Source of the DNA: Asterochloris sp. CNOR1
Taxonomy: Eukaryota > Chlorophyta > Trebouxiophyceae > Trebouxiales > Trebouxiaceae
Reading direction: 5' to 3'
Assembly (NCBI GenBank): GCA_963969365.1
Contig: OZ017750.1
Coordinates: 3,720,001 to 3,784,000, forward strand
DNA: 64,000 nt
A program made the translations under genes and the position numbers. This document shows, piece by piece, positions 1,536 to 60,800 of the stretch; position 1 is the stretch's first letter; every line of letters begins with the position of its first letter. Under the pieces are notes generated by a model. That model had not been told where the DNA came from and did not search any database. It was given only the letters and a program-made list of their open reading frames with translations.

Positions 1536-2851
1536 GAAGCAGTAAGCAAATGTAACCCATGAAGCAGTAAGCAAGCAGCGTTCGGGAATATGAGGGACCA
1601 GCTGGATGACAGGCCTGCTGTGGAAAGCCTTGCCTTGCGCAAGGCGCCTGCCATTGAATTGCCTCAGCTCTCAGCGCTTACACCGCAAACGACGCATGAA
1701 ATAGGTCATCTGACATGAATAACGCACATGAGGCAGCTGATGTCTGATCGTGGCATTTTGAAGCGCTGACGGCGTCATGTGAGCTTTGCCGGACAAGCAG
1801 AGATGCTTTCATGGGTATATAGCAAGTTGGAGTCAGTTCTGAGTGGTGTTCAGGCCCAGGCCTGAGCTTTGACATGCAGCAGGAAGCAGTCACGGTTCCT
1901 GAGGCCATCAGCACTCCTGAGCATGGCATTGAAGGTCACGTCCAGGCACAGGGGGTGGTGGAGTCCTCCTTTCAGAAGCTCAGACGCAGTTGGATGAACC
2001 TGCTGGCAAGCCAGCTGGCATGCAGTAGCGTGTCACGGCTGGGGGAGCAAGCATGGCTTCTTCTGAGTATTGCAATCGATCAGGGTGAGACAACACAGCG
2101 CACCATGGTGGCTGTGGCCAGTTGCATTCGTGCCCTGCATGTGCTCAGGACTTTTGAGCAGCTCATGGGCCAAGGCAAGCATGCAACAGAGGCAACAGTG
2201 CAGTCCACATGATCAGGGGCACCTGGTGGCATGGATGCAGGCTGCCTCTGGCTGGCTAACTGGGACAGCAGATGGGTTTACAAGAGTTGCAAGATCATTG
2301 AGTTCATGAACCCCAGCTCAGCCACCTGCTGTCCGGCAGCCGCCACATGTGTGTGTGCTGCACAGCAGATGACAAAGCACCGTGGGGGACTTGCAAGCTC
2401 AGAATAACACATTTCAGGTGTCCTCATGATGGTGGACACCTGACTGATGGACGAGATGGACAGCTAAATGACAAGCTGCAGCCGAGGCTCCAGGTTAGGC
2501 AAGGTCTTGTGCAGCAATGTCACAACATCATTGGACCACAACATCATTGCCGATGCGCACCTCCCTCAATGTACGCCGAATTTCTGTTGTTCGGCTTCTT
2601 TAAGCAAATTGATGTTGACGCTTGACGGGATGCATTAAGGCCACTCGTTTTCGGGATGTAGCATGGCTTTAGTTTTAGGTCATCTGTCAAATAGACAGAT
2701 ATAAAGATAACGCATTGAGGAGGCATCAGCTGCCTGATTGTGGCATCTCGAAGTTGCTGAGCGTCAATCGGGTTCGGATATGGCGTGGCCATTAGCAGGG
2801 ATAGATTCACGGACCTCCTGTGTACATAGCCACTGGAGCCAGATCTAAGCG
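1536..2851. other. Divergent intergenic region
   Basis: This separates the start of the left-edge minus gene from the DDX60-like start at 2852. It contains the decayed duplicate of the helicase first exon (about 1690-2230, see separate entry). An AT-richer stretch (about 2570-2720) immediately precedes the helicase and could hold promoter elements; I can name no specific element. No further gene is supported here. Confidence 0.5.
1690..2230 (+). repeat. Decayed upstream duplicate of the helicase first exon
   Basis: This block is a diverged copy of about 2690-3215. Shared segments in the same order include the stretch before the ATG, the ATG-CAGCAGGAAGCAG start, the coding motif ESSFQKL(R)RSWMNLL, and the downstream tract ending CAGTCCAC(A/T)TGATCAGGGGC. 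In the real exon the donor is CTGCTG|GTGAGT; in this copy it is CTGCTG|GCAAGC, so the GT is lost. It could be a dead exon or an alternative first exon with a GC donor. The offset is about 1.0 kb. Confidence 0.85.
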
Positions 2852-5800
2852 ATGTCGCCAGGCCTGACCCCTGACATGCAGCAGGAAGCAGCCAACATTC
2901 CTGAGACCATCAAAACTTCTGGATCTGACGAGGATGGTGACGTCCAGGCACAGAGGGTGGTGGAGTCTTCCTTCCAGAAGCTCAGACCCAGCTGGATGAA
3001 CCTGCTGGTGAGTCAGTCGCATGTCACGACTGGGGGAGCCAGCATGGCTTCTTCTAGATATTGGAAGGATCAGGTTGAGACAGATCATCGCTTCATGATG
3101 GCTGTGGCCGGCGGCAGTCATGCCCTCCAGGTGCTCAGGACTTTCAAGCAGCTCATGGGCCAAGGCAACCATCCAATAGACGCAATCTCGCAGTCCACTT
3201 GATCAGGGGCTACTGGCGGCGTGAATGCAGCCAGAGGCAGCGGGCCTGCAGGGCAGCCTGACACTGCTACAGGTCCTTTGAACTTGCCGCTTGACTCCAT
3301 ATGTAACTGACTCACTCCTTGAGCCTGGTGAGATGAACAGATTTTGGCACGGCATGCAATGGCGACACCACATTCAAGCAAGTGCCCTACATGACGTGCA
3401 GCCGCATGGCCTGGCAATGCGTCGGGCCTGCCTTGCCATGTAGCGCTGCTCCGCATGCTCTGCCACCTGTCACTCTGCGCCAATTTTGCTGCAGGACGAC
3501 CTGGGCAGCATCGACCACTTCATCATCGAGGGCGACGCGCTGCTGCTGGACCTGCTCAGCTCTGCCCGCCTCGACTTTGCGCACGGTGTGCAGCAAGCCA
3601 CCTCCAGGACGCAGCGCAGGCTGTCGCTGGGGCATGCAATATTCTTTGTTGGCTGCCATGCCATGCCACGCCATGCCATCCCATGCGCTCCTGCTGGACC
3701 CGCTCAGCTCCGCCTGGCTGCGAGCACAGTGCATGGGACAGTGCACCCCCTCATCGTGCAGCCTGTCGCCTGTGGGCAGTTAAACACAGAATGACACCCT
3801 CTAGGTGGCAGATGCACACATGTGGAAGGCAGTGCGCAGCGCAGCATCCTGTGACCTCAGCAATGACAGTCTGCAGGACAGGCTGGCACAGTGTGCCCTG
3901 CAGCTGGGGTGGGGGCCCTGAGCGCTTGCACACCATGCGCTTTGCATGCACTGCCAGGTGCTGCGCCTGACACCAGGCGGAGCATGATGAGCTCAAGCAG
4001 CACAGCATATCACAGCAGTCGAACTGGTGCAGATGGTCTTAGTATAAAACAGCCGCAGAAGTGACTGCCTGGGCATGGCTGCCTTCCGGAGCTGCATCAC
4101 TGTGTGAGGGGCTTGAGGTGTTGGAGTTGCTGACTGCAACATGCTGTTTGTTGACCGAATTTGCAGCAGCAACAAGCCTCCGTCCAGCAGCCCAGCAGGG
4201 ACAGCCAGCAAGCTAAGCCTTCCAATGCCACCTGCAAGTGGCCATGTCTTTGAGGTTGATCTGTGGCCTAGAGCAAGCCACAATCACTGGCCTGACACTG
4301 CACTGTAAAGCGCCATCACAAAGCTTGGCTGCCCCTGCAGACGGCCAACAAACAGCTTTGTGCCTCTTACTGTGCGGCCTGCAGGCGCTAGGCCTGAGTC
4401 CCAGCGAAAACACTTCTGTGCTCCCCTGATGTCTACTGGGAAGCATGCCAGCACATGTACTTGCCCATCTGCAGGCGGCCAGTTCCTGCAGCTCATCTGG
4501 GGCCTGGAGCAGATCATCGCCCGTCTGGCAGCCTGCCAAAATGCCCACTTTAAGGTTGTCTTTTTTGAGCAGCAGCGGACGCTGTGGCAGCATGAGCCCT
4601 CCCTACTCTTGGCCAGGGACCTGGCCGAGCACCACCTGCGCAGTGTGCTGCATGTTGAGGTGCTGAGCATGGACAGCTGGTGGAGCCCCGAGTGGAGGCA
4701 GTACCTGGCAGAGGTGGGCTCCTGCAGCAATTTCTTGCGCAGCTACGTCTAAACAGGGCTACTGGGCAGCCCTGATAGGGGTCTACTCTCCTGCTATTGG
4801 TCCACGTAGAGCTGCAGTGAGGTTTGGAGCATGGTTTTGCAGTGTGTCTCGCCTTGAGGTGCTGTGAGTAAACAGTTGGTGGATCCCGGAGTGGAGGCAG
4901 TGCTTGACAGTATTTCTTTGCCTTGCAAAGTCTGCAGCCTTCCTGCTTGCAGATGCAGTGGTGTACCTGGAACGACAGCGCCTAGCAGTGGCAGGCACCA
5001 GAACTTGCAGCACCAACACCCAATCTGCTATTGAGCCGCTGTGAGTCGGCAGCTGGCAGAGCGCTGCATGGTGGCACTACCTGGTAGAGACAGCTTCCTG
5101 CAGGATCTGAAGCCGTTGCACCTCGCTGTTCTCATGGATGTGCCCGCAGAAGCTGGGGACCCAATCACAGGCTGAGGGAATGCCTGCCAAGGAGTTGAGA
5201 CTGAGCTGTCAGTGTCTGGTCACAACCAGCCGACGGGCTTCCTGTCTGCAGGCGGCTCCCGCGTTCATCCTGCTGACAGACCTGCCAAGGAGTCAAGCCT
5301 GAACTATTCGTCTCTGGTCACAATCAGCCGAAGGGCTTTCTGTCTGCAGGCGGCTCCCGTATTCATCCTGCTGACAGACCTGCCCGGGCCCCAGGCCGAG
5401 CAGCGGCTCAGCACGGCCCAGAAGCTGATGCAGGCGGCCTCCCTGTTCCACCTGAGCCACCACACAGCTGGCCACATCACCCAGGTGGCGTTCCTGCCGG
5501 AGTTGCATTTTCAGCAGGTGGGCTGCTTCAGCTTGCAAGGCCCCATGGAGCCCAGCTCCACATTCCCAGCAGCAACTTTCCCACTCACAACAAGGCAGCA
5601 TGCTCCTGCCTGGTGCGCTGTGCACAGCGTGCATTCGCATCACCAGGGGCATCATACATCAGGGCCCTTGCAGTGCAAGCTTGGCTGGTGCGCCTCACTG
5701 TCAGGCAGGCCTTTGCTTTGGCGCTCATAGTGCCCTGGAATCTCTGCGGGGCATGGTAGAATTTGGTCTACCCTGTGCAGACCGATCGCTTGTGGTTCTT

Positions 5801-8800
5801 CCTTAGCAGATGGAAGGGCGTGAATAGTTAGCAGACACATGCCTTCGTGGCATCAAGTGACCCCTACTCGGCATGGAGGTGTTTGCCAGACTAGCGCCAG
5901 GAAACATTGGCGTTGGGTGCCATTGCTGCTGCAGGTTGTGTCGGAATTAGATACAGCATCATGACATTTGCCTGACTGCTGCTGAAATGCCTGTTGATGT
6001 GCAGTCTTGCTGTTGCAGGATGTGTGTTTTGTATTTGGATGTAGTCAGCGGGCCTTCCTGGGGCTGGAAACTCCTGGTGATGGGGTTTCTTGCTGCTGCA
6101 GGATGTGGTGTTTGGCTTTAGATGCAGCCGGCTGGTGGCCAGTCGCACGCATATAGGCCCAAGCGCAGGGACACTGCAGGCTGCACAGACTGCCGGCATC
6201 GAGGCTTGCGCTCAGCTGGGAGGGGCACCGACCGAGACGGCCATGGCCCTGCAACTCTGTGATGCCGAAACCCTGCAGGGTGAGCTGGTGCCAGCAGGGG
6301 GATGCCTGGCAGAGCTGGCCCCAGCGCACTGCTCATGGCAAGCACAGCCCCCTTCTGACATTGCTACATTGCCCAAGGTCTCAGCACTGCCCTCCAATGC
6401 TGGCAAGCCTGGCATGAAGCGCCTACTGAGCGTTTCTGCAGCATTGCTGTTCAAATCAGCAGCCTGCATGTTTTCATGTTGTGCAGCACCTCCTGCAATG
6501 CTTTCAAGCGGGAGCTCTGTGCATTGCAGCTGCTGACTGCAGCCCAACGCTGCCGGTGCAGGCACCGGCCTTACGCCCCTGTGGCGTACTCGCGCAGGGA
6601 CTGCTGTCTGCGCTGCTCTTGTGGGGCAGGCAGCACCGTGCGACCCCAAGCACCTCCCAGTCTTGGTGAGTCCTGCTGCATGCTTATGTTGTGGGACCTC
6701 CCGCAGAACCAGTAGTTTTTCTGGACAGCCCCTGAAGCCATGTCTGCCATGGTGGCTGCCTCCGCGAATGCGTCTGATGCCCAGAAGCAACCATGGCCTC
6801 ACGACCTGCGGCTGCGGCGAAGCACAGCTGCCCCAGCGTGATTGTCCAAGACAGCGTGTGCTCTGGTAGTGTATCTGCACTCAAGAGGTGCAATTTGGCA
6901 GTGTGCTTTGCCTCTGGCAGTGCACACGCTCTCAGGACGTGCCTCTTCATAGCCGTGCACGTGCACGCCAGAGGTGTGGGGCTGCGCTGTCGGACTCACC
7001 TCCATGCGCCTTCTCAAGAGCAGACTTCGCAAGCCAAATTGGTTTGATGCTGCTGTCTGTCTCAAAGAGCAGCGATGCTGACACAAACCCTACCTCTTGC
7101 TGATGCAGTCTATCCTGATAGGAAGACATGCTGGCACAACCCTTGATGATTCTGTGATCTGCTGAGGCTGTCTGTCCTGAAGATCTGTCCCTGCCTGCAG
7201 GTGTATGCCTGGTGCCTGCACGAGGCCCTGCTGCAGACCCTGGCGCTGCCCCAGCGCGCCCTCACGCTGCCAGAATCGGTTGCCGAGCCTGCCCCGCTGC
7301 TGGCAGCCCTGCCAGGCTTCCTGCAGGCAGTGTGCAGCGGCCTGCACCAGCTGCTGGCGGGCAGCCCGCCCAGCCCAAGCTCCCCAAACCCTACATCTGA
7401 CCCCGCAGGGCACGACCTGGCCAGCTGTGCCGATCTGCTGGATGGGCGCATCATGCACATCCTGGTGCACAGCCTGAGCGCCCACCAGGCGCTGGGGCTG
7501 CCAGAGCAGGTCGCGCAGGCAGCCAGCGGGCTGCTGGCGGCCGTCTTCAGCCTGGCCGGCAGGGGCGTGCCCACCAGCGACCCTCTGCTGGAGGCGGCGG
7601 AGCAGTGTGCGGCAGCCCCTGTGCCAGAGGCTGAGGCGCTTGGCAGCGGCAGCCACCCTGAGGGTAGAGCCAATGGTCACGCGGGGCTGCCAGACCCAGT
7701 CATGGGTCATGGGCTGGTGCAGGCCTTCCTGGGCAGTTGCAACACTGACGAGACCGACGACGAGGATGCTGACTGCAACACGTGAGGCCTTCTGCGCCGA
7801 CCCAACCCTAAACCCTGTGAGGGGGTGTTCAGACATCGTGTGGACCTGAGCAGGGTGGTTCAGTCATAGCTTTGTGGGAGGAGGGTGCATTGCTTGGTGG
7901 GCAGGAGCGCTGACCTGCATAGGAGAGCTGCCCTGCTCTCACACCGAGCAGTCATGAGCATTTGGGCTGGGTGGTCGACTCTCTGGAGCCAACCTTCCGG
8001 TGCGACTGAAGGCACCAGGCCACCTCAGCAGTTCCCTCGAGAGACTCTGGGCTTGCCTGATGCACATGTACATCAATTCACACTCAGCAGCCACAAGCGT
8101 ATGTGCAGGGTGGAGTCGCTGGAGCCCGCCTTCCTGGTGCTGACCGAGGATGACAAGGCAGACATGCAGAAGTGGATGGAGGCTCCCCTGATAGACGTGG
8201 CCAAGGGGTGCCGCTACCTGAGGCCCTTCCAGCGCCGCAAGGTGCAGCAGCTGCTGACCTCGCTGGAGGCCAGCGTGTTCAAGCCATCCGAGGCTCAGGA
8301 CCGCCAGCGTGAGATGCGCCAGCAGGTCCGCGAGTGGATCCAGCAGTTCCAGGAGCGCATCAATCAGCTTCAGGTGAGACAGGCAGGAAACATGCTTGGG
8401 GTGGAAGCACTTCAGCAGGCACAGCAGTCTGTTGCAAGTGGATCCAGGAACGCGTCACCCAGCTTCAGGTCAGTGGGGCAGGAAAAGTGCTCATGGTGGG
8501 ACACCTGTGCCGGTAGGGCAGGTCTGCATGTGAGTCCAGCAGTTCCACGGGTGCGTCACTGCTTCAGGTGAGACAGGAGCAGGAACGATCTGGCATTGGA
8601 AACAAAGCGTGGGCACAGCAGCTTCTGGAAGTGGATCCAGCAACAAATGATCCTAGAGCCTAGAGCGCATCGCTCGGCTTCTGATGGAATGGATACGCAA
8701 AATGCCTTGGGTTTGAAACCCAAACAAACATGGAGCTTGGGAGTGTCACGACGGTGCCTCATTACAGCTGCCTGCATGCAAAGAGCTTTGACAGCAGCCC

Positions 8801-11800
8801 CCTCAGTGGATGCAGCAGCTTCAGGAGCTCAAACATCCAGTTGCACAGGGGCAGAAGGTGACCTGGAATGAGCTCGGCACACACGCTTGCAGCATAGCTG
8901 GGTAGGGCATGACCTGGCCTGCTCAGTACCCTTGGGGACTGCTGCTTGCCCAATGCAGTAGAATGTCTCTGACTTCCAGCATGTCCAGGAATGGATGACC
9001 CAGGTGTGGCATGGGCTACTTTTCAGCTGCATAACACAGGCTCCAGGTGGTGCTGAAGTGGCAGAGGTATCATTGCGGCCTGGGCTGGCTTCAGATGCGC
9101 TCTGCAGAAAAGAGGGTCGCATAGAAGGGGCAGGCAGTTTTGCTTTTCAGAGTTCACTTCACATGGCGTGATTTTGGTTGTCTGCAGAGCGACCACTTGC
9201 AGCCTAGATGCGCAGCCGAGTGTCATTGTCGATGCCAAATGCCCTCGTCCCTTGCACGTCCCAACGCCTTGCTCACATAGCTCTTGCTGCTCTGCAGGTA
9301 CGCTGCTGAGCCCGGTCACACAATGCCGGCAGCGCCCAACATAGTCTCATTGTGTCGTTGCTGCTATGCAGAGTCGTCACTTGCACAACTACGCAGACAC
9401 GCTGAGCCAGCAGGTGTTTAGCAGCTCAGCGCAGAAGGGCGCCACATCTGGCGGCAGCAGGCAGCCCCAGCCTGGGCGGGGCAAGGCTGCAAAGCCCGTC
9501 AAGCTGAGCAAGGCTGAGCAGATCAAGTGAGCTGCTGTGCAGCATCAGATGTGTGTGCCCTGTCCATGTGCCTGAAAAGACACCTGCGAAGCATCGCAGC
9601 TGTGCCCAGTCCATGTGCCCGAAGGGACACCTGCGAAGCGTCGCAGCTGTGCCCAGTCCATGTGCCCGAAGGGACACCTGCGAAGCGTCGCAGCTGTGCC
9701 CAGTCCATGTGCCCGAAGGGACACCTGCGAAGCGTCGCAGCTGTGCCCTGTCCATGTGCCTGAAGGGACACCTGCCAAGCGTCGCAGCTGTGCCCTGTCC
9801 ATGTGCCCGAAGGGACACCTGCCAAGCGTCGCAGCTGTGCCCTGTCCATGTGCCTGAAGGGACACCTGCCAAGCATCGCAGCTGTGCCCAGTCCATGTGC
9901 CCGAAGGGACACCTGCGAAGCATCGCAGCTGTGCCCTGTCCATGTGCCTGAACGGACACCTGCAAAGCATCGCAGCTGTGCCCTGTCCATGTGCATCATC
10001 GCAGCTGTGCCCTGTCCATGTGCCTGAAGGGACACCTGCAAAGCATCGCAGCTGTGCAAATTGTCTGAATTTCAATATACTGCATGCTCAGCAGCTGTGA
10101 AGTACTGGGGTTGTGATGGGCATTCGTCAGAATAACTGCAAGGGCCACTGCTTGGCCTGTGTGGCTGTGCAGCAGGCAGTCTCCTGTGCTTCGGCTACTG
10201 CGATTGCGCAGCTCTGATCACCTGAGAGGACCTCGGACTGAGCAGCAGTCGACAGGCTTTCTCGCCTCAAGGCATGTGGTGTGGGCAGTACAATCAGTGT
10301 CAGCCCCCTCCTTGCCACCTGTGACGCACTGCACGTGCAGGGCTGACAACACAGCCCGCAAGCAGGACAAGGGGGCCAACCAGCAGGTTGGCAGGTGGGA
10401 CGTGAAGCGCAAGGAGTTTGAGTCGGAGATCAGCCGCAACGGGTGGACGCCCGCTGCCCAGGCCAGGGCCGATGCCTTCCTGCGTGAATGCGAAGGCGCA
10501 CCAGGCAAGCGCTGGGCAACATGTGCACGCATGTCCCCCGCGGTCGAGCATCAGGTGCCTGCCAAGGATGTCAATTCTGGCTATGTTCTAAAGAATATTC
10601 ATTGGCTGCATGTGTCCATGTGAGCACACCAGGCAAGCCCATGCCTGATCTCACCCCCGCAGTAGCCAGCCGCCTGCTGCTCCAAATAGGCAGAAGCCTG
10701 TGCAACCTCTAATCATGTGCATGCACAGACCTCCTGCTTCACGTCAGCTGCATGCAACTGCTGAAGCTTTGTGTGCTGTTCCTTTGGTGCAGATGTGGCC
10801 GCAGCTGTGGCCCTCTTCAGCCTGCAGCACAGTGTGGCGGCCTGGAAGACGAGCTGCCTGAAGCAGAAGGGGGAGCAGTCAGCTGAGGCAAATGGGCGGG
10901 AGACGCCGGACGCCACTGTGGATTTGCTGAAACAGTCCGGCTGGCGGCAGCTGCGGGGCAGTGCTGAGCATGCGCAGGTGAGGGTAGCCACCTGATCTGT
11001 AGGGCAGCGCCAAGCATTTGCCTGATATTTGCAGAGCTTGTGGTGCAACTTGAGGGTTCATGCACAGCCTGCAAGCAGCTGGGCAAGCCTGCACTTTACC
11101 AGTTGCATGGCAGAGCATGAGGTTTACTTTGTCTTAGACCTCATGCCCCAGTGCACAAGTGGCAGGACAAAGACCCAGCTCTTGGCTCTCTTTGTGGGGA
11201 GATCTGGGGTGATGCACGCTCTGCAGCCTCTGCAGGCGGCTGCTCAGGGCTGACAAAATACCTGTGTCACACCATCTGCATTGCAGCGCCAATCACCTGC
11301 AGCTAGGGGAGACCCTCATCGCGTTACAGCTGTGCTAAGCCCCTCTGAGGCGTGGCAGGGGCTGCTGCATAGGCCATGCAGCTGTGCCCCTTACAAGCAC
11401 CTGCGAATGGAGTGACAGACACATGCGTCAGGGGGTTTGCAGCTGCGCAAGCAGCCAACAAGGACCACCTGAGGCCTCCAGCCGCCATGGCAATGTGGCC
11501 TGGGCACGCAATAGGGTCCTGCATGCAGCCGCAACGCTTGATGCTCACTGTCTGCACTGGATGCTTGGCTGCATGCCAGGAGGCAGGTCTGCCTTTTGCC
11601 GTGGCCGCTGCTGAATGTCACTTTTGTTGCGCTGCCGGGGTGGGGCCCTGCAAACTGTTGGTGCTGCCTTGCAGCTGCGTCACCTGCTGCACCATCTGCT
11701 GCACCACAGTGCCAGGCATATGCATATGTGCAGGGCGAGGGCGCGGATGGCAGCTCAGGCACCAATGTTTCACTCAACACCCTTGCCGCTTTCTATGCAG

Positions 11801-14800
11801 GCCATCTGGCACACTGTGCTGTACTCCAGGCAGCAGGGTCTGCTGGCCAGCATAAACATGTCACGCATCACCCTCCATGCTTTCCATGCTGGTACAGGCA
11901 GCAGGGCTGCTGGCCAGCACCAACATGTCACTCATTACCCTCCATACTGTCAATGCAGGCCATCTGGTACACTGTGCTGTACTCCAGGCAGCAGGGCCTG
12001 CTGGCGAGCAGCCGCGAGCTGCTGGCTGAGGCTGTGAAGGCGCTGCAGCTGCTGGGCTTCCAGCAGGCGGTGGAGCAGACATCGGCTGAGGCGGCTGCTG
12101 CAGTTGGTGGGGAGCCCAAGCCTGGGAAGAAGACCAGCAGCAAGAAGGGGAGTGGCAGCAGCAGCTTCAGCAGCAGCCACGGCAGCAAGCAGGTGTGTGC
12201 AGAGGCCATTGGGGCCTCTATTGCTGGTCAGCCTGTGCACACGCTTGATTGCTGACCCCAATACGCATGTAAGCTCTGTATAGTGGTACATATTACATTT
12301 TAAGTGCAGCTCAACCAAAACTTAGCTGGTCTCTGGATGTCCTTCACCAGAAGAGCATGTCATATTGCAGACCAAGCATTGCTACTGCTGCTGACATGCT
12401 TCATAAATACACAAATATCATAGCTGCGCTGTGCTCGCAGAGATATTGCTCATCACACAATTAATGCATTGCCTTTGCCATGCCCTTTGCCTGCGCAGCA
12501 GTGTGATCAGCCATTCACCCCAGCATAGATGCAATTCTTTGGGTCGCTATCTCTGCAGAGTGCCAGTGGCACTGGGGCCATGCTGCATTGCAAAACAAGC
12601 AGCAACAACAGTGTGGTGTGAGTTCTGCAGTATGCTGCCGGCATGACTGAGGTGGAGTTCCAGCTGGCGCACTGCGGACACCTTCTGCAGCGAGATGCGC
12701 CACCCGACCGTGACCCTCGTGCCAAGTCCTTCAACCCAGACTACTGGCAGGTGACTGCTGCTGTGCTGTCCTCTGCGGTGCTGATCTTAATCCTTGAACC
12801 CTGACCCCCCAAGTCCTCTGTCTGGAGCTTGTTGTTGGCGTGATGCTTGTCTTGAGTACTTCCTGGCGCCGCAGAGGGAGGTGCCAGAGAATGTGGACTT
12901 TTCATGTTCTGCCAGCGTCGTTGACGTCTGTGCAGCGCACTTCAAGCCTTCTGTTGACGTACAACCTTTGTTGCAGACGATGAGAGCATCTTGTCATGAC
13001 GAACTCCACCGCGCCTGGGGAGTTGTTGTTGAGTGGCTGTTGCGCTGTGTGTCATGCAAGAGATTGCTGGGCCCAGCTTCATAAGAGAGAGGCTGTTTGC
13101 TGGTGCAGAGGGAGGTGCTGGATGTTGTGGACTCGTCATCGTCTGCCATTGTGGTGGCTCCCACTTCCAGTGGCAAGACATTCATCTCAGACTACGTGTG
13201 CAACCACGTCATGCAGCATGGGGGGCGGGTGGTGTTTGTGGCACCCACCAAGGCGCTGGTCAACCAGCAGCACGCACAGGTCAATACTGGCAGTGCCTTT
13301 TTGCTTGAACTGATGGGATACCACTTTGTCCATGCCCCGATGAAACGCCCTAGTGGCATGCAGCCTCACTCTAGTGCTGGCCGTGTTCCACCCCATCAAC
13401 TGTGCGCTGCCCAGCATCTGGGTCCTGGTAACAGCCATTGCCTGTTCTGGGCTGTGGGGATCCCAGAAGTGCTTGCTTTGCCTCAAAATGGCACAGTGCC
13501 TATGCCCTCCTAATGCAAAGGCTGAATCCCATACCCTCAAACAACCTTTCCCCTCTTCAGGCGGCAAGGAATTTTGGGACTGACCGGGCCGGAGTCTTCA
13601 CCCGGTGAGCCACATGGCACCTGCAACAGCAATTCATGTGCGGCTGCACTCCTGTAGCCTGTGATGATCTCCGGCAAAGCACTGCATGCAACCAATGTCC
13701 TGCGGGCGGTCACATGTCTTGCCCACAGCTGCATTCATGCAGCTCTAAATCCTTTCTGGCATGGTGCTGCATATGCTGCTGAGCGCAGAGGCAATGGTCA
13801 TGCTCAGCGTCATGCCATGCAGCTCCTTATTGGCCTCTTTTATCTCCAATCACTGGGCTCAATGCCATTTATGAGGTTTTGCACAGCAAAATCAGTCACA
13901 GACTGCACTAGCTAATCTGCTCTTCTGTGCTGTCAGCTGCACCTCACTGGCCTCTGTCTTTTTTCCAATCACTGGACTGCAGTGCCATGCATGAGGGTCT
14001 GCGCAGCAAAATCAGTCAGAGAGTGCACCAGCTGCCTTTCTTCGCTCCTGTCAGCCTGTCCGGCCAGCGATTTCCCCGTGAATCGCACAGTGCGCGCAGG
14101 GCCTTTTCCAGCCTGAGCAGCGTGCCTAGCTCTGACTGCCAGGTTTCAGACCTAGTGTTACAGCAGCTGCCTGCTTGGCAGCCTGAATCTGACACATCCC
14201 AAACGCTGTTGCAGGGATTTCCGTATCCATGCCCTGGACGCTCGCATCCTCATCACTGTTCCAGCCTGCCTAGAGGTGGGGCGCTGTACTGCCCTGAGAC
14301 TGTATATGCTGCGTCACGCTTTCCTTCAACCGACGGATTTTTCCGTGTTTGTGCAGATTCTGCTGCTGAGTCCCAGACACCAGGAGTGGGCGCGCAGCGT
14401 GCGCTACGTCATTTTCGATGAGGTGGGCCCCTCTCTGGTGCTGGCAGTGGGCCATGGGCTGTGCTGCACAATGTGCTTCTGCAGATGGGCTCAATCAACT
14501 GGCCACATATCTGTGCACTCCTGCATCAGCAGCCTGTTCTGCTGGAATGCCCTTCTCAAGTCACTTATAATCCGCATCCAGGATACGCGGTCGGCTGTGC
14601 CAGTCTACAAGTCATATCTTGTGTGCAGGTGCACTGCATGAGGGAGGGTGGCATCAAGGAGGGTGGCACCACAGAGGCAACTGGGGTACTCTGGGAGCAT
14701 TGCCTGGGCCTCATCAGGTGAGTTTGCAATCTAGTCAGTCGGTCAGCTGAAGCTTCATGCGGCTGTTAGGTGGGGCCAGGTAGATCATGTCACTGTCTAT

Positions 14801-17800
14801 GCCAAGGAATGTTGTCAGGAACAGACATGGTCCATGGCGGGATGTTGCCTAATGGGCGGGCATAAACATCGGTGGTGAGTCTGTGTGTGTCATGACAGGT
14901 GGTTGTTCTGCTTGTATCTTGAATCGCCAGTTTGCAAATGTGACACTCCTGGCAGCTGTACTAGTCATGACATGAGCATACAGCAGTGCAGCTCTGAGCA
15001 GCTGAGTAAAGAGAGCTCTGTGCATATAGCGCAACACTGTCACGAACTGGAGTGCTCCTGCTCTGGATGCCATTTAGCACACTGAGTCGCTCCATGCCCA
15101 ACTCTTCAAAGATGTGCAGTGCATGTCATGCTTCTACTTGGAAATGCAAATTTTTGCATGACACCGCACCCTTGCATCTGTAGAAAACAGCAGATCAGGA
15201 ATGCCACTGGTTTGCTGCTGACCAGCGATGCAGAAGATGCTGGCTTTGGAAGAAGAAGTGCCACATGATGCTGCAGGTGCCCCTTCTTGGCGCTGTCTGC
15301 CACCATCGGCAACCCAGAGGCCCTGCAAGGCTGGCTCCAGAGCCTGAAGTCGCTGCAGCAGAAGCAAGACAGGGTGGCCGGTACAGCTGCCAAGGGTTCT
15401 GTCTATGATGTCCGACTGATTGTGCATCGCGAGCGCTATGCAGACCTCAGGTGGGCCAACATCTTTCATGTAATTGCTGAACTACATATTTTTAAAGTAT
15501 CCCTGCCAGAGCATGGTGTGTGGCTGCATATCTGTGCTGCCACAGCATCTTACCAAACCGCAGGCCCAACCTGGTTGGGTCTAAGTAATAGGGCCTTCTA
15601 CTGAGCATGAGTATGCTCCATGTGGTACGGCAAAGGCTTGGTGCGGTGCCTGCACAGCTTTACAGCTCCCAATGCACATGTTTTGGCCTCCCTGACAAGG
15701 CATCTTTCAGCCGGCTGTGTGCTCATGCTTGTGCTCTGTGCAGGCACTACATGGTGAACACAGGAGCGCTGGACCCTTGGAGAAGCCAAAATGATCCTCT
15801 CCAAGCTTCTGACGTCCAGAACATGAAAGGTCAGCACTGTCTTGCATTGTCCAGCTGGTCAGTGGCTGCTGATGACCAGCTGCAGCGAGACTCAGGCTCA
15901 GCATGTTTCTCTTGTGCACTTCCAATAGCCTGAGTTGTTAGATCCAGCTCTGCTAAGTGGAGCTTGGCTTGGCTTGCTCCTCTTCTCTATGAGAGCCATC
16001 ACCTGGACGCCCCCTCAGGGTGTTGTGTGGATGTCTTACAACGTATACAATGCAGTGTACTTGGACCTTTTACTCTTCTGGGTCAGCTTGGCACCCTCAG
16101 GAAACTTTTGGTCACTTTACTGATGTGCGCAATGCAGCCAGCATACCCTTTCACCTGGCTGGGTCCAGCTTGAGGACCTTTGCTGACGATGCTCACTCAA
16201 CTTCCTGCAATGCAGCCAGTTTGGCTCTTGCACTTGGCTGAGCCACCCCAAACCTGCATGCTAAGGCTGCCCTTTGATGTCCCAAATGTTGCACATGAAG
16301 CTGGTCCCTGTGCTGGGCAGCTTAGCGGCTTGGCATGCTGCATTCCTGTAGGCACAAACTTTGCTGCAAGCAGCTGGTCTCACCCTTGATGTGCTGTTAC
16401 CGCTGCAGGTGGCTGAGACGGCCAAGCTACACGCCTGCAGGCTTGAAAGATGCTGCAAGCAGCCAGCCTCACCCCTACGTGCTGCAGCCACTGCAGGTGG
16501 CTGAAGTGAGCAAGCTACGCAGATGCAGCTGCAGAAAAATGCAAGCAGCTGGCCTTTCTTGTTGATGTGCTGTCGCCCCTGTAGGTGGCAAAAGCAACCT
16601 TGCGCAGTGTGACTGCAGTCCACGATGCTGCCTGGCTGCAGACAGCTAGCCCTGACTCCATATGTGCTGGTCCCCTGCAGGTGGCCCGCAGCAGGTTGAG
16701 GCCGCCCTGCGCAAGCTGCACCCCTGCGCGGTGCTGATGCTGGAGCAGCTGAGCGGCAACTTCCCCAGCGAAGTGACCTTTGAGCCGGCCGATAGCCTGC
16801 AGCTGCACGCCACCATGCAGGCGGTGGTGGCAGCCTTCAGCCAGGTGAGCCACCTGCAGCTGCATGCAATTATGCAGGCGGTTATGGTCTAGGGTTCAGC
16901 GGTTATGTGGTGGCAGCCCTCAGCCAGGTGAGCCACCTGCAGCTGCATGCCAACATGCATGCATTGAGGGTTCAGAGTCTAGATGGTGGAAGCCTTCAGC
17001 CAGGTGAGCTATGCCGTTTAGGGTTCAGGGCTTGAGGTAAGCATGGCAGCACTATCACCTCTGTGTTGCAGTTACCACTTGCAGAGGTCATGCGTGAATG
17101 TGGGATGCAGTGAGTTGTGCGTGTTGGTGCAGGCTACCCAGCGAGGCACAACTCATTTGCAGTGTTACTGCAGCGCCGCCCTCAAATGTGGTTGACACTG
17201 CGAGTGGGCCAGAACCTGCGGTGCTGGAGGCGGCCTCTGTAGTTTGGACTCCGAGGTGTTGACAAAGGCAACCTTGCAGCCAGACATCCAGAAGGATTGT
17301 GGTGCTGCAGGGCCAGGGAGAAGTGGCCAACGGCCACGGCGGCGCCGTACACCAGCTGTGGCAGGACTGGCAGCAGCTGGACGCGGCTGCTGCAGCGGCC
17401 TGGCTGGGGCAGGCTGGGGAGGCCTGCGAGCGCCTGGCTCCCGCAGCCTACTTTCCCGCTGGGCAGCCGCTGCTGCGCACGGTGCAGCAGCGGCGGGGCC
17501 AGGGGACCGAGGGGCAGACGGATGCACAGGCCGCCCACGCTGCCCAGCCCACCGCCCGCAGCTGGGAGGGGGCCCTCAAGGCGCTGCTGGTGGAGTGGGC
17601 AGGCGCGGGCGGGCCTGGCGCCACAGCTGTGGCGGCGGTGCTGGGGCTCCTGCGGGCGGGCATCGACGTGCAGGGGGAGGTGCGCCGTGTCAGAGGTTCA
17701 CCAGCCTGAGGCGCTGCGCATCATGGTCATGCACCCATGCAGCTGCTTGCTGCTGTGAACAGCACGGGCCCCTGTGCAGGCCCCAGAAGCAGCTGAGCCA

Positions 17801-45832: not shown

Positions 45833-45850
45833 CACGTGGCCTCCATTAAA

Positions 45851-47192: not shown

Positions 47193-48003
47193 CTGCGGGC
47201 TGGTGCTTATCTGGAGCATATCCCTGCTGAGCGCGGGCAGCACATGGCGGCTGCATGGGCGTGTCAACTCATGTCAGATAGGAGTACGCGGCATGCTGAG
47301 AGGCTCCTGGCTGCTTTCTGTTGGTTTCAGCGGGACAGTCCCGCCAGAAGTGCCCATCACACATCTCGAATATGCGCAACAGCGTGGGCAGCGCCGCAAA
47401 ATGCATAGCTCCCGGTCTGCATGGCTCCTGGTCGCCATAGCTCCTGGTCAGGGCTCTCGGAAGTTCGGACCGCATGAGTGCCGGGACGCGACTGCCACGT
47501 GAATCGTTTGAAAACCAGAATAATGTGAGTTAAAGTGTGTCACGTCGGCTGACCTAAGTTTTAGTTCAACAGCAATCAGTGAAGTCGTGCTGGTGATCGG
47601 TTGCCTGCACAGCTGATCAAACACGCCTCCCAGCTGGCGTCAGCCTGAGCATCCCTGAGACAACCAGGTGAGCATTGGGAAGTTGAGTTCTCATCCCGCA
47701 TTTGGGCGTGCTGAGAGCTGCAGCAATGTTCAGAGTGCCTCAAGCATAATCAAGAGTGCTTTGGAGCCGGGTCGAGATATCTGCACCAGACATGCAAACT
47801 ATCTGCAGGGGTCGAGGGTCCCCGTTCAAGCTCCGAGAGGTCTTCAAAGCTCTCAAAGCTGGCACTCTACTGTGCTGGTGAGCTGTGTGCACGGGCAGTG
47901 GCCAAATCTGACTTACTGTTGCTCGGAGCGACCCCTGAAACCAGCCAACAGTCGTTGATGTGATGAGCGGGCCTTGCTCAGCTTGATCTAGCCAGCCCCT
48001 GCT
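47193..48003. other. Divergent region between the LRR gene and AP2 gene
   Basis: It probably holds the LRR gene's missing first exon (near 47410-47330), both promoters and possibly a noncoding or coding first exon of the AP2 gene. No further gene is supported. Confidence 0.4.
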
Positions 48004-50970: not shown

Positions 50971-51864
50971 CATGCGGATTCTCCGCTGTCATCATCAGGG
51001 TAGATGGCAGTCTGCTGCGCTTGTCTGCCTGGCACATAGCAGGCGCCACAACACCAGCCCACTCAGCCAGTGCGGCGCAGGCTGCCTAGCACAGCCAGCC
51101 CGCTGCAATACCAGTCTTCCAAAACGGCATGCCCCACACAGGCACTTGAGTTTCCACCAGACGCAGCTCATCAGCTCTCCACCTCTGGCCCCTCCCGCAG
51201 CAGATCCTGCAGAGCGTTATAGTCAGGTCCCCGGCTCATTGGAGACAGCTCTTCGCCATTTAGAGGGGCGTTTGGCACTGCATCTTGTGCCCAGACCAGT
51301 GCAACTTTGCATTTCTTCATGCTTGTGAGTGTACTGATTGGCGGCGCTTGTGTGATTTGCTCCCTCAGTCAGCTCAGAGCATGCTTCTCTGGACAATGGC
51401 CTTGAGATGGAGTGCCCAGCCCTCTGTTCTCAAGCATTCCCGCTATCAACACCTTGGTTGGTGCTGCACCAGCAGGTTGCCGAAGCTTTAGTCTTTCAGG
51501 CAGCTCCTGCACCCCTTTTTGCGCTCACCCAACCAGACCACTCATTTCGTGTTCAGTCTACTGTCCTTGTTCATTGCGCGCACATGGCGACTGCTCCCAT
51601 GCTGCCCCCGAATTGATTTGTCTGGCACCGCAACATTCATGGGCCATTGGGGAAATAGGATGCAAGCAACTGTTCTGCAAGCATTCACGACAATCTGCAC
51701 GGAATGAACGCTCAACCATCTCCACCTCTGGGCTAGCTCTTCGGCGTGCGTTAGTTTCTTCATTTTGGCTGCAGATACCTAGTCTGAAAGTACAGTACAG
51801 TGTAGAGCATGTAATTGTTTCACAGCGCAAGCCTGGAACATGGAAACACACGGAGTACATGCCA
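50971..51864. other. Convergent intergenic region, AP2 to TMCO4
   Basis: About 0.9 kb between the AP2 stop and the TMCO4 stop. It should hold both 3' UTRs. I see no exon-like pattern with splice signals and no TGTAA near either stop. Confidence 0.5.
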
Positions 51865-54800: not shown

Positions 54801-57800
54801 GGCTTGTCAACCAAGCGATTTTGTGACGCAGATGCTGTTGTCCATTGCCTTGCAGATCGACAGGCACAAATGTACAGCTGCACGCCAGCAGCAAGAGTAG
54901 TGCTTGCTACAGCTGTAAAAGCAGCAGCCTGGCTTCGCACTTGCAGCCCAATCTTATGCAGCAGTGCACCACAGCAGCGCAGCCCATGGCCGGCAGGCAC
55001 CATAGATGCATGAGAACTCACTGGGCGTCTATGATATCTGACGCGCCCAGCAGGGTCATGGGCAGGGCAAACGCAGCCACAAGGCCCTGTACTACCAGGT
55101 GCTCGACAATCAGCTTTCCAGCCTCCATCATTGCCTGCACAAAACACAACACACAGCATTGGCAGTGGTGCGCACGAGGCAGGCAGCTGCCTGGAGTTGA
55201 AAAGCTCCTGCAAAGGTGACGTATGGCTGAATGACTGCAGCAGAAAACACCATGCAGCATCGTTGAGCAAGGGGCCTGGCACCACCAGGTGCCCCACAAT
55301 GAACTGAGCCTCCCTGACTGCGTCGCAGTTGCAGCACCATTGCGCACCGGAACAGGCACCAAGCGTGATCCTCTGCCCTCAAGGCGCAACAGTCATGCCG
55401 CCATCAAACTTTTACAGCACAGGGTTCAGAGGACTGGGAACGTGAAGCTTTAGCAAGAGCCTCAATTTCTTGGGTTTAGTCACAAAAAGCAATGCAGCCC
55501 CTAGGGTCTTGCAGCGCTTGACACCCTGCCCAGACCTTGTACAACAGAGGGGAGCTACTTTGTACATGTAAATCATAGCTGAGTGGGTCAGGGTTGTGAT
55601 GGTGGGCAGAGCTCAGTGGGTGCCCTCCCATAGCAACAGCCGTGCGCCAGCCCTGTACCGGAGGACCTGCAAGATCTCGTGGCTCGGCCCACTTTCTTGA
55701 GCTGCTTCAGATGCCCTGCCCCAGTAGAGACAGCATTACATATCAAGTGCTCACCTTGCCCTTCACACTGGCACTCAGCAACTCATGGCAGCTTCACGCA
55801 GCCCCATGCAGCTGCAATGGAGGGCAGCACCCTGTAGTGTGGTGTACACTGGAAGCACTGGAAGCATTTTGTCTAGCCCTTGTGCCAGCGGGCAGCACCC
55901 ATGTGTCCCAGTCTCACTTGTATCTAAAGCCAGGCAGAATGCTGGTTTTAGACAGGTGCTGCATTTGGGGCCAACAGGCAATGGGCTTGCAATCGGCCCC
56001 ATACAGCTGTGAAGGGCAACGCATGGAAACGATGAGCACAGAAGCAAGCATACTGCTGCACACTCACCTTGTTCTTAAGGAAGGTGATCAGCGTCTTGTT
56101 CAGCGCCACCAGCTCCTTTGTCTCCCACACCAGGCAAAAGCGCTCAGCATCTGCGGCAGCCAGCGGCCGCCACACATCAACTGCAGGTCAGGCAAAGCAG
56201 TCTGGTGACGCAGCGGCCAGCACATGCTGCGCCATCGCTGAGGAGGATGTGTGCAGACAGCCCATATTGTGCCCTGCCATCCCAAATGTACCTGCGTCGT
56301 GATTTACAAGTGCGGTGCAGGCTTCCATAGACAGGTGCCCATACACAATCCTGCCAAGACAGCCAAGCTTTGTTGCCAAGCTGCCAGTGATCGCATGTAT
56401 TAGCGAGGGCACCCACCAAAGTCAGAGGGCTTGGCAATCCAGCCTGCCACGCCCACAGTGAGCGCCAAGCGGGGATCAGGCCGCCGCTGCGCTGTGACGG
56501 GGATGGGCAGCAGTGGAGGCTCGCTGGCAGCCTCCTGCAGGTGAGGGCGCAGCATGAGTGCTTATTGGGGCGCAGCCTGACGCCTTGTCAGGGCACGTCC
56601 TAGAAGTCTCCAAACAGGACTAGCCATGGCTGCACCCTGCAGGGCAGGGCGCAGCAGGAGGGTTTCTCTGGGCATAGCAGGAGGGGTCGTCAGGGCACGG
56701 CAGGAGGGCGCATCAAGGCGCGGCAGAGAAGACTTGCTGGCAACAGTTTGCACGTGGGGCCCTTAGCAGGAAGGCTTCTTAGGGCGCAGCATGAAGACTT
56801 CTTGGGGCGTAGCATGAGGGCTTGTCAGGGCTCAAACAGCAGGGATACTGACTGCAGCACACCATGAGCTTGTACCACCACAGGTACGGGCCTGCCTACT
56901 TCCAGGCAGTCTGACGGGTTTGAAGCCTCCAACATGGCAGTCTGGCATTCAACTGTAGCACAGCTGTGGCACCAGTCAGGCCTGCCTGCACAAGAGACAG
57001 CTGCCATCCAACTTGAAACCACAGCAACCCCAAGACTTGTGGCTGAGCTGTGACTCTCTACCAGACCCACAGTGCAAGGGTCCTGGCGGCTCACCTTGTC
57101 CTCCGTTGTGCGGCGGCCCCACGGCAGCCACGAGCTGTTGCTGCTGCTGGTGTCTGGCGATCCCTCTTGATGGCCTGCACAAGGAGCCCATTGACGTTCT
57201 CTGCAGCTGGACACGCTATTCTTGTTGATCAACCACCTCTACAATAAACATGCTAGTTTCTCAGCAACCACAAAAGCAGCAACTGGCATACAGGACAGCC
57301 TCAGCAGCTGGAAATGCAGGTCCTGTTGCTCACGCAGCTCTGTACAAGCATGTCATTCAGCAACCCCCACAAGACCAGCATCTGGCATGCTGCTGGAAAA
57401 CACTGCCGGTCTAGCCAGTATTTGCAGTGCTGTGCAGTGCACAGACCCTCCTTCTGCCAGCGCCGTTCACTGATATGCAAGTTTCTGGACTCCCCCTATG
57501 GCCATGTCTGGTCTACTCAATATGTGCAAACATGCTCTATGATGACTGCCAGCAGAAATTTCTGAGACTGCATGCATGTCTTCAGTAAGACCAAGACCCA
57601 GTGGCGACCTCCTGCAGCCATGATTGGCGTAATCGACCAGACTGGCTGGCCTCGCCAATACACAAGCCCTCCTGGCCACCATCTGTCTTTGAACATGCAC
57701 GACTCCAACCTGAAAACGTCTAGCATCCGCCTGTGGCTACATCTGACCTTCAGAAGTTCCGAACCAGCTGGCGGACTTCTCCTTTGGGGCTGCCCTTTTG

Positions 57801-60800
57801 GTGGGGCTGGATGATGGCGAGCTGGCTGCCGCATCTGCTGTGCTGGGACCATCCTGCTGTGCCTCCTTCTCTGCTGCCACGCTGGTCTCTGTTGCTGAGA
57901 AGCGAGAGCTGAAATTGCCGTCCTCAGGCAGCGGCCGGAACCCAAACTCCTTGACATCACCTGCAGGCCAGGTGAGAGTGGTCCTTGTGAGACTAGCCGC
58001 AGGGGCAGGAGTCAGACGTGTTTCTGTCTGCCTGACATAGCAGGCAGAGCCGGTCACCTGGAGACCAAGAGGGCAGATAACACAGGAGGCAGAACACTGC
58101 TGTAGGCAGCTCCCTGACATCACCTGCAAGCCACCCACAGTGCAGGCAGAGCCAGCCTTCTTGAGTGAAGAACTCGACTTGTGCAGCCTTGGTGCGCAGC
58201 CACCCCATGCTGCAACAATCTGCAGGCCATTTTGCCAGGCCAAGTAGTGCGCCAATCCTGCTCTGAAACTGCATTGTCCTGTCCTGGACAGTCTGCGAGG
58301 CCAACCCCTTTCATGAAGCAGTCCCCTCCCCACTGGGCCCTCTCCCTCACACAGCACATCCCAGCCATGATTTACCTATCCGGCGGGCCATCTTGCCACC
58401 CACATGGTATGCTCCGCCTGCTCCAAAGCCGCCGATGATGGTGGCAGCTCCCACGCTGCTGCCCATGACGCCTGTGACTGCAGTGGCTGCTGCTGCGCTG
58501 CCCCCGACGGTGCTGATCGCAGTGCCTGTGACTGCCGCAATGGCAGGGGCTGCCAGGCCGCCTGCAGGTGTAGCAACAACTCTATAATTTTAGACCATCA
58601 CATGTACAGGCGCAGTAATGCTTGTTTGCCAGCGGACATGCACACCTGAAGGCGCAGCACCACACACTCTCCAGCAGAGGGGAGCAGCAGGGCTTCACAA
58701 ACTCTGCATCCTCCGCAACGAGACCTGCTGTTGCTTCTGACTAGTCAGCAACACACCTCCACCCAAATACAAAACATTGACTGGGCAGGCATGATGCCAG
58801 CATCATATGCAGAGGCCTCCCCTCACATAGCACCTTCACAGTTCATGCAAGGCAGCTATCACAAGATGGTGCCTTGCAGATGGCTGCAGCATATGCTGAG
58901 TCCTCCCCTCACATAGCACCTTCACAAGTCATGCAAGGCAGCAACCCCAAGATGGTGCCTTGCAGATGGCAGCCATCTGCAAGGCATCAGCAAGATAGCA
59001 GACGCTCCTGCTTTAGCCAGGACGGCGCTAATATGATTGGTCCATGCCAGGGGCACCAGTGACAGCCAGTGTCATTTAAGTGCACCTGTGATAATCAAAG
59101 AGACATTGTGTTCACTCCACAGTGTACCTGTGACCGCAAGGAGGGCGCCTCCGCCCACAGCTGCAGCGCCGATGGCTGCATAGCGACCCCAGCTGGTGCC
59201 CTGGGACTTGCTGGCATCCTCAGCTGCCACCTCCGGAGGCTGCAGCAACAGCTGACGTAATCATCATTTCAGGCAATGGGATGTCAGCCAGGCCTCAGGG
59301 GATGCACATAACAGACAGATATGGGGCACCCCAGGCAATGCAGCAGCGTGCCTTGTGCTGCACATGAATACAGCACGAAAAGCTTATCTGGAGCACACAA
59401 TATCTGGCCCAGACAGATATCCAGCAGCCGACTAGTTCACGTGACCCCCAGGGCATGCCGCAATGCTGCACGCAGAATGGCCAGCTCGCGCCAGCTGTCA
59501 GTATCTGGAAGGCATTGCAGCGACGCTGTCATGGTCCACAGACTCTTAAATTGCAGGCTGCGCCGTAAAGTAGCAGCCCCTCTAGTTGACTGCTGAACAG
59601 CAGCAGGGGCTCTCAATCAGGACAGCATTCTGCCTCCTCTCGCAGCACTGTTTCCAACACATCATAGCAGGCCTGTTCATTGTGACTGCTCCCAGACAGT
59701 GAACGGTCTGCTGAAAAATGGCGCAGCTCTCACCCTGCCTGCTACTCCAATTTGATCACGCTGCCACCAAATCAAGGGAGGCCTCATCAAATTTGCCTCA
59801 GAAGCAGCAGAGGGCCTCTACTTGCCGTGTGGCTCTCACCTCTGCCTCCTGCGCGACCAGGCACTCATATTTGGCCACCACCTGCCAGGGCACGTTGAGC
59901 CACTGTGCCACGCGCTTCATGGCCACGCGGCCCCTCGCGTCAAACCAGCGCAGCTGCGGCTGAGTCTGCACCTCCTCGGCCGGCAGCTCTGCTGCCTCGG
60001 CTGACCTGCCGCCAGCAGGCGCATCAGCGTCAGCTGCTGCGCTGCCTGCCTGCTGGCTGCTGGGCTGGCCGGCAGAGGCCTGGGCCGCAGCTGGAGCAGG
60101 GCGACTGCTGGCCACCTTTGCTGCCTCAGGCCCCAAAGCAGCACCTTGCGCCGTGGCTGAGGGGGCTTGCTGGTGGCCTGTGATGGCTGCGCTGGGCTGC
60201 AGCTTTTTGTCGCTCCCTGCCTCCCGCTCCTGGGCCTCCTGCATCACGCTCTGCAGCGTGGGCATCTGGGATTTGCCGAGGCAGGCGTGCAGCAGCTCGC
60301 TGAGCGCAGCGATGGCCTGAGCTGATACTGCGGCCTGCTGCTGCTCCTGGCGTCCCCTGGCAGCCAGCTGGGAGGCGGACAGCTGGTCGGTGCCGCCCCG
60401 CAGGCCCTGCACTGCCTCTGCTGCAGACGTCTGTGGTTCTGCAGATGCGCTCTCAGCAGCTGACGAGGTTGTGAACTCGGAGCCCAGCAGATCTGCAGGC
60501 ACAAGCCACCTGTGTGTCCTCCTGAAGGGTGATCTGGTGGTGCAGCCTTGGGCAGCCTGATGTGGCATACCAACCCCATGCTTCTTCAGGAGTCAGCAGC
60601 CTGCAGGTGGCAGGCATGCAGGCAGGGCCGGGCTGTTACATCAGCCGGTGTCGTTAGGAGCCAGAGCTGAGCTTACTCGCCCTGCCTTCCAGCTTGTCGC
60701 CCCCTTGATTGCAAGCCAGGCAGCAAAAAGTTTCGGTGGGGCTCATGATGCTGCATCTGCGGCCAGTTCTGGTATGCTGCTGCCAGCCTGGGCAGCATCC

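What the first reader, a model, noticed from the sequence alone, without database searches (positions are those of the whole stretch)
1690..58140. Introns built from decaying tandem copies of adjacent exon edges and splice sites
In at least 15 introns of five unrelated genes, the intron next to an exon contains one to five copies of that exon's edge plus its splice site and some intron. Period is about 75-115 bp, with lower identity in several of the more distant copies. Both sides occur: acceptor edges (DDX60 exons 4, 5, 8, 12, 14, 21, 31, 34; TruB exon 3; aspartate kinase exons 4, 5, 8; TMCO4 exon at 57960) and donor edges (DDX60 exons 8, 10, 21, 23, 30; aspartate kinase exons 4, 6). The copies are seen directly. 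That they arose by recurrent junction-spanning tandem duplication and drive intron growth is inference. Tandem duplication is a known model for intron gain; such a genome-wide, ongoing pattern at existing introns would be unusual.
Basis: partly seen in the sequence, partly recalled or inferred. Interest (0 to 1): 0.85.

Follow-up and report, generated by a model that had tools for sequence, protein, structure and literature searches.

The report
Old tandem copies beside exon edges
In this green-alga-like genome, introns carry faded copies of the neighbouring exon's edge; they look like leftovers of ordinary short tandem duplications, mostly old, that remain visible largely because the exon itself changes slowly.

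Summary
In the window 28 of 168 exon edges match their own intron better than all 200 shuffles (0.8 expected). In a 314-kb sample, 36 of 510 donor-side and 19 of 514 acceptor-side edges have a copy in their own intron; other genes' introns give 0 and 0. For longer exons the copies lie on the near side only (45 of 747; far side 0 of 747), as tandem duplication predicts.

The process does not look specific to junctions: intergenic and intron-intron arrays are similarly frequent (0.55 and 0.69 per million opportunities, n = 4 and 14). The higher exon-intron rate (2.51) is close to what a simulation without junction preference gives (55:15 or 62:9 expected, 56:14 seen), because the exon half of a duplicate stays recognisable longer. 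Nor does it look ongoing: young copies of this size are nearly absent and a constant rate fits badly. Best reading: an old, genome-wide wave of small tandem duplications, tolerated where the outer splice site stayed in use, which lengthened introns. The molecular cause is unknown.

The parts
4655..5103 (+). DDX60-like gene: donor edge of exon 4475-4713 with copies at lags 199 and 376
   Evidence: self-BLAST 57 bp 81% and 73 bp 71%; donor 4713 beats all 200 shuffles
5183..5384 (+). DDX60-like gene: acceptor edge of exon 5350-5517, full tandem copy of 98 bp with intact TGCAG|G
   Evidence: 87.5% over 104 bp, also; genome search returned only this place
5970..6135 (+). DDX60-like gene: acceptor edge of exon 6102-6279, lag 82
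8322..8644 (+). DDX60-like gene: donor edge of exon 8109-8373, copies at lags 95 and 196
11759..12010 (+). DDX60-like gene: acceptor edge of exon 11959-12192, copies at lags 68-158; the predicted exon 11801-11845 is probably one of them
12871..13148 (+). DDX60-like gene: acceptor edge of helicase exon 13109-13279, lag 234; true exon fixed by homology to kDDX60 (7ase)
13819..14033 (+). intron-internal duplication, lag 117
16334..16589 (+). tandem array, lag 89, in an intron region with doubtful predicted micro-exons
16824..17009 (+). DDX60-like gene: donor edge of exon 16681-16844, lags 83 and 159
18248..18411 (+). DDX60-like gene: donor edge of exon 18182-18262, lag 75
22053..22287 (+). intron-internal tandem duplication, lag 84
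23317..23608 (+). DDX60-like gene: donor edge of exon 23207-23361, copies at lags 84 and 164
24221..24439 (+). DDX60-like gene: acceptor edge of exon 24382-24510, tandem copy, lag 107
25025..25214 (+). DDX60-like gene: donor edge of exon 24922-25045, lag 78
   Evidence: this edge is not among the 28
28676..29216 (-). TruB gene: acceptor edge of the exon starting at 28732, copies at lags 87, 174, 264 and 480, each keeping GCAG; a further copy between 264 and 480 was read by eye only
40437..40572 (+). aspartate kinase: acceptor edge of exon 40538-40748, lag 95
   Evidence: true exon fixed by alignment to 2cdq
40660..40872 (+). aspartate kinase: donor edge of exon 40538-40748, lag 129
41410..41754 (+). 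aspartate kinase: acceptor edge of exon 41657-41896, lags 111 and 228
42407..42580 (+). aspartate kinase: donor edge of exon 42343-42444 (KDVDG), lag 102
56507..56831 (-). TMCO4-like (DUF726) gene: acceptor edge of the exon bounded at 56534, lags 102-237
57961..58375 (-). TMCO4-like gene: intron with a 24 bp, 92% copy of the acceptor edge at 57960, lag 163
58793..58973 (-). intron-internal tandem duplication, unit 86 bp, 88%

Best explanation
These are fossils of small DNA-level tandem duplications (smallest lag 65-200 bp in 74 of 84 arrays, mode 75-115) that fell more or less at random over the genome. When one spans an exon-intron junction and the outer splice site stays in use, the protein is unchanged, the inner copy becomes intron and decays, and the intron is one unit longer. 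The exon copy is held by selection, so its half of the pair stays recognisable longer than the intron-intron half; that makes old events look like copies of exon edges. Inside exons mainly in-frame duplications survive. Most events are old and very few are recent. Shown: near-side tandem geometry, size mode, similar intron and intergenic rates, scarcity of young copies. Supported by few cases: the frame filter. Inferred: neutrality, which splice site is used, the age wave, and the enzymology (end joining of staggered breaks with fill-in, or Okazaki-flap errors).
For: Direct repeats within 600 bp: 126 against 16 inverted, of which 15 are hairpins. Lag peak 75-114, 150-210 times background per lag. 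Near side 45 of 747, far side 0 of 747. Arrays per million opportunities: intergenic 0.55 (n=4), intron-intron 0.69 (14), exon-intron 2.51 (53), exon-exon 1.05 (7). Arrays with alignment at least 0.9 of the lag: exon-intron 16, intron-intron 2, against 77% expected by random genic placement. Six arrays lie within one exon; five lags are divisible by three (105, 93, 273, 114, 108; three of these in locus L023), one is not (148, at a doubtful model); exon-intron lags mod 3 are 24/22/21. Exon against intronic copy: codon positions 1+2 82.6%, position 3 78.3% identical, p=0.006. Fitted simulations give exon-intron:intron-intron 55.4:14.6 (indel rate 0.3) or 61.5:8.5 (0.12), observed 56:14; constant rate gives 42:28, log-likelihood 19 against 63 and 4 against 54. 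Partial sharp-edged copies are expected of old decayed units. Arrays are locus-specific.
Against: Exon-intron and intron-intron aligned columns have the same identity (0.81), and the paired difference in 41 alignments is +0.018, p=0.22; detection thresholds may equalise them, but this does not show slower exon change. The position-3 effect is smaller than a simple model predicts. 48 of 84 arrays have short cores with flanks near random; old tandem copies can explain them, but so could copying with a spacer. Coverage peaks 1.5-fold at junctions on the exon side. The simulation assumes exon rates of 0.1/0.1/0.6, units of 115 +/- 35 bp and ages up to 0.35, and labels a case exon-intron by the unit while the data are labelled by at least 8 aligned columns. 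Gene models are computed, not from RNA, and 20 of the 25 sample loci come from two contigs.
Confidence: 0.74

Rival explanations
1. Junction-targeted duplication: splicing, transcription or R-loops at splice sites provoke duplications there, so the exon-edge bias is mutational.
For: Repeat coverage is 0.06-0.07 at the junction, against 0.04-0.06 inside the intron on the donor side and about 0.03 on the acceptor side. Junction-spanning pairs 57 against 41.6 by random placement. Exon-intron array rate 3.6 times the intron-intron rate.
Against: A similar bias comes out of simulations with no targeting. Fully tandem arrays show no clear bias (16 of 18 against 77%). Exons alone and intergenic DNA carry the same kind of array.
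Confidence: 0.12
2. Local copying of short pieces with a spacer between the copies: 3'-flap 'alternative duplications' in Okazaki-fragment maturation, or templated insertions in end joining, rather than whole-unit tandem duplication.
For: 48 of 84 arrays have a core shorter than 0.6 of the lag with flanks near random (8.07 against 7.87). Flap-derived duplications with an internal sequence between the units are described (PMC13202174, passages).
Against: Far-side copies are absent (0 of 747), although 34 of 55 near-side lags exceed the median exon length of 117. Only one spaced inverted pair was found. Simulated old tandem copies give similar cores and flanks.
Confidence: 0.12
3. The copies are functional: duplicate exons or decoy splice sites kept for alternative splicing.
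For: Several copies keep TGCAG|G or GT sites; the four TruB copies aligned keep GCAG.
Against: Of the copies inspected, the aspartate kinase one at 40437 has a one-base gap, two of four TruB copies have in-frame stops, and the one at 12871 differs mostly at amino-acid-changing sites by eye. Lags at junctions ignore the reading frame.
Confidence: 0.03
4. Artefact of assembly or of gene prediction.
For: No reads or RNA were available; micro-exons in the models are doubtful.
Against: The repeats are seen without gene models. Most copies differ by 10-30%, too much for assembly duplicates. True exons were fixed by homology for parts of aspartate kinase, TruB and DDX60.
Confidence: 0.01

Closest known systems
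[quoted passage not shown]
   Same: A duplicated unit crosses the 3' end of an intron and the start of the exon; splice signals are inherited from the parent (abstract and passages seen).
   Different: There a new intron was made, in one gene. Here existing introns appear lengthened, on both sides, at many sites, and the copies are old.
Duplication of exonic sequence with intronisation of one copy (Drosophila, PMC2891723; Rogers AGGT model)
   Same: Tandem duplication around splice motifs, with one copy turned into intron (passages seen).
   Different: Those are new intron positions from coding duplications; here the copies sit in existing introns beside the copied edge.
Small tandem duplications at staggered breaks made by CST/Pol alpha-primase fill-in and end joining (PMC8355091)
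   Same: Small local direct duplications of genomic DNA (passages seen).
   Different: Induced in mammalian cells; the passages seen give no mode at 75-115 bp and do not mention introns.
Introners (PMC9860276)
   Same: Many introns affected in one genome.
   Different: Introners are elements that insert copies of themselves into many genes (start of abstract seen); here each array has its own sequence.

Membership tests
Small tandem duplication (local, DNA-level) | direct orientation, copies adjacent, unit about equal to the lag | tested here: inconclusive
   Direct against inverted 126:16 and near side only are met; alignment at least 0.9 of the lag in 23 of 84 arrays and under 0.6 in 48 of 84, which simulation can attribute to age
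Small tandem duplication (local, DNA-level) | frame filter inside exons, none at junctions | tested here: met
   5 of 6 arrays within one exon have lags divisible by 3, three of them in one locus; exon-intron lags mod 3 24/22/21. Few cases.
Tandem-duplication intron gain (Rogers/AGGT type) | a new intron position arises | tested here: inconclusive
   copies lie inside introns next to the copied edge; whether any whole intron is new needs relatives
Junction-targeted intron-growth process | excess at junctions beyond random placement and detectability | tested here: not met
   simulations without targeting predict 55:15 or 62:9, observed 56:14; full arrays 16 of 18 against 77%
Ongoing process | young (over 90% identical) copies at least as common as older ones | tested here: not met
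   of 72 arrays with 40 or more aligned bases, 16 lie at 0.85-0.90, 2 at 0.90-0.95, 0 at 0.95-0.98, 1 at 0.98 or more; constant rate fits far worse
Introner-like elements | shared sequence between unrelated introns | tested here: not met
   3 weak pairs among 84 arrays; two arrays searched in the whole genome match only their own locus
Mutually exclusive or alternative exons | copies spliced and coding | not testable with these tools
   no RNA; a gap or stops in three of the copies inspected

The most novel reading that the evidence does not exclude
A discrete past wave of 75-115 bp tandem duplications, perhaps a transient replication- or repair-mutator state, seeded a large part of this alga's intron sequence and then stopped; exons act as preserved reference copies that let such vanished duplications be read. 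The two fits call for about 420 or about 2,090 intron-touching events in 314 kb, most now invisible.
Probability: 0.25. Interest if true: 0.7.

Novelty: new variant of a known kind. Interest (0 to 1): 0.45.

Why it matters
It gives a measurable route by which introns can lengthen without changing the protein, seen in a sample across a genome rather than in a single gene, and a method: the exon is a slowly changing reference against which old duplications remain legible. It also warns that exon-edge repeats can look targeted when they are only better preserved. If the size mode and the stop in activity hold in relatives, a lineage-specific change in replication or repair could be dated.

Tried and rejected
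Gapless autocorrelation hits first suggested that intergenic DNA is depleted of these repeats (16 against 218 per million at lag 75-115). At the level of whole arrays the difference is small (0.55 against 0.69, n = 4 and 14), because long arrays dominate the hits, so I dropped it. The random-placement test also showed intergenic 5 against 21 expected; its total includes exon-touching pairs, which are easier to detect, so I rely on the array rates.

Sharp-edged short copies first looked like copy-paste insertion. Simulation showed that old tandem units under exon constraint look much the same, and the far-side control gave zero; kept as a rival.

Rows dropped: 9 self-matches of a 47-bp minisatellite at 9554-10057; one search masked 9500-10070. 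They are still counted (in one search they add 9 to 'intron only'). Short predicted exons: columns in exons under 30 bp left out; exons under 25 bp treated as intron; exons under 30 bp dropped; exons under 100 bp left out. One search left out introns under 60 bp and edges under 40 bp (641 of 661 introns used); one search's junction profile left out introns under 120 bp; one search left out introns under 110 bp. Donor lags printed are 20 too small; lags here come.

No comparison with another eukaryote was made: the whole genomes on offer are prokaryotic apart from G000, which has no relatives there, and I did not scan the viral or prokaryote contig collections.

Literature searches. None of the listed titles or abstract starts describes this pattern genome-wide. 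Gao and Lynch 2009, which I think the most relevant, is not held, so I cannot say it is absent from print. Schiml et al. 2016 (paired nicks) and Tishkoff et al. 1997 (rad27 duplications) are recalled; Zhuo et al. 2007 and Gao and Lynch 2009 were seen as citations. PMC12712428 (Trebouxia) was seen as abstract and passages.
Full report
WHAT IS THERE. The window is G000:C5:3720001-3784000, ending 9 kb from the end of a 3.79 Mb contig in a 56.4 Mb genome of 21 contigs, with plant-type TTTAGGG telomeres at both ends of contig 1. I sampled 25 further stretches of 10 kb (20 from contigs 1 and 2, 5 from contigs 3-5), 314 kb in all with the window.

IS THE OBSERVATION RIGHT. Yes. In the window, 46 direct pairs lie within 1.5 kb (9 from one minisatellite), against 2 distant direct and 4 inverted. 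In the sample, direct pairs within 600 bp number 126 and inverted ones 16; direct pairs further apart number 7, and 15 of the 16 inverted ones are hairpins. The spacing spectrum peaks at 75-114 bp with a dip at 35-74. With a 60-base exon-edge probe at score 28 or more, 36 of 510 donor-side and 19 of 514 acceptor-side edges match their own intron; introns of other genes give 0 and 0, own introns reverse-complemented 1 and 0. In the window 28 of 168 edges, in 23 introns, beat all 200 shuffles. Copies cross the splice site in a number of cases, some with an intact GT or TGCAG, and the TruB exon has copies at 87, 174, 264 and 480 bp that keep GCAG. Identity does not fall steadily with distance. 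The window is not clearly richer than the rest (0.38 against 0.24 arrays per kb, p=0.08).

GEOMETRY. For exons of 100 bp or more, the 3' edge is found in the downstream intron in 29 of 371 cases and in the upstream intron in 0 of 376; the 5' edge upstream in 16 of 376 and downstream in 0 of 371. This is what tandem duplication of a unit spanning the junction gives, and not what copying to either side would give. Junctions are copied unspliced, so the event is probably at DNA level. The arrays are locus-specific.

IS IT ABOUT JUNCTIONS. Probably not. The 84 arrays (minisatellite rows dropped) divide into 56 exon-intron, 14 intron-intron, 9 exon-exon and 5 intergenic. Per million base pairs of opportunity at lags 65-250 the rates are 2.51, 0.69, 1.05 and 0.55 (n = 53, 14, 7, 4). 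Introns and intergenic DNA agree within these small numbers. Six arrays lie within one exon and five have lags divisible by three (three of them in locus L023), while exon-intron lags fall 24/22/21: it looks as if selection filters one random process. The exon-intron excess is close to what detection gives. In simulated tandem duplications with constrained exons, detection at age 0.22-0.30 is 34% when an exon is touched and 4% when not (indel rate 0.12; 10% and 0.3% at 0.3). Fitting ages alone, with no junction preference, predicts 55.4:14.6 (indel 0.3) or 61.5:8.5 (indel 0.12) where 56:14 is seen. Among fully tandem arrays the exon-intron share is 16 of 18 against 77% expected. Exon third codon positions differ more from the intronic copy than first and second ones (78.3% against 82.6% identical, p=0.006), as expected if the exon is the conserved party. 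Against this, identity of exon-intron and intron-intron columns is equal (0.81), and the paired difference in 41 alignments is +0.018, p=0.22.

IS IT ONGOING. Apparently not at this size. Of 72 arrays with 40 or more aligned bases, 16 lie at 0.85-0.90 identity, 2 at 0.90-0.95, none at 0.95-0.98 and 1 at 0.98 or more. Under a constant birth rate the youngest class should be the largest, whatever the loss rate. In the simulation a constant rate fits much worse (log-likelihood 19 against 63, or 4 against 54 with fewer indels); the fits put 0 events below 0.05 and about 2 at 0.05-0.1 substitutions per site. Perfect young arrays exist, but with units of 19-31 bp, plus 55 bp at 96% and 61 bp at 93%, so the assembly does keep identical tandem copies. 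The fitted totals, about 420 or 2,090 intron-touching events in 314 kb depending on the indel rate, suggest that much intron sequence may be decayed duplicates; this rests on the model, whose exon rates, unit sizes and age limit I chose.

SHORT CORES. 48 of 84 arrays show only a short core (best alignment under 0.6 of the lag), with flanks near random (8.07 against 7.87). Simulated partial tandem units give flanks of 7.4-8.8 and core identity 80-85% at ages of 0.22 and above (9.2-9.6 and 81-83% at 0.15-0.22); observed core identity is 83%. Flap-type duplications with an internal sequence remain possible (PMC13202174).

MECHANISM. Fill-in and end joining of staggered breaks makes small tandem duplications in mammalian cells (PMC8355091, passages), and the genome has matches to Ku and to family-A polymerases; this shows only that parts of such pathways may be present. 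The size mode and the stop in activity are not explained.

KNOWN OR NEW. Junction-spanning tandem duplication has been described in a potato gene (PMC4974935) and exonic duplication with intronisation in Drosophila (PMC2891723). A genome-wide set of old copies, with intron lengthening rather than intron birth, is a variant.

Noticed in passing
window 9554-10057: 47-bp minisatellite, 9.4 copies at 95% identity (9554-9994), inside a DDX60-like intron; different in period and age from the arrays studied.
   Followed up: partly
window 1809-2240 and 2816-3230: Direct duplication of 432 bp at 78% identity, 1007 bp apart, at and before the predicted start of the DDX60-like gene.
   Followed up: no
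L023:264-614, L023:2403-2630, L011:4912-5236: In-frame coding tandem repeats with lags of 31, 38 and 35 codons in predicted exons.
   Followed up: partly
L007:3302-3707, L028:3409-3778, L028:4595-4877, window 29049-29142: Hairpins (self-complementary stretches of 94-411 bp), possibly small inverted-repeat elements.
   Followed up: no
introns of the 314-kb sample: Predicted acceptor consensus is very strong, TGCAG|G (T 92%, G 93%, C 97%), while the donor is ordinary CAG|GTGAG.
   Followed up: no
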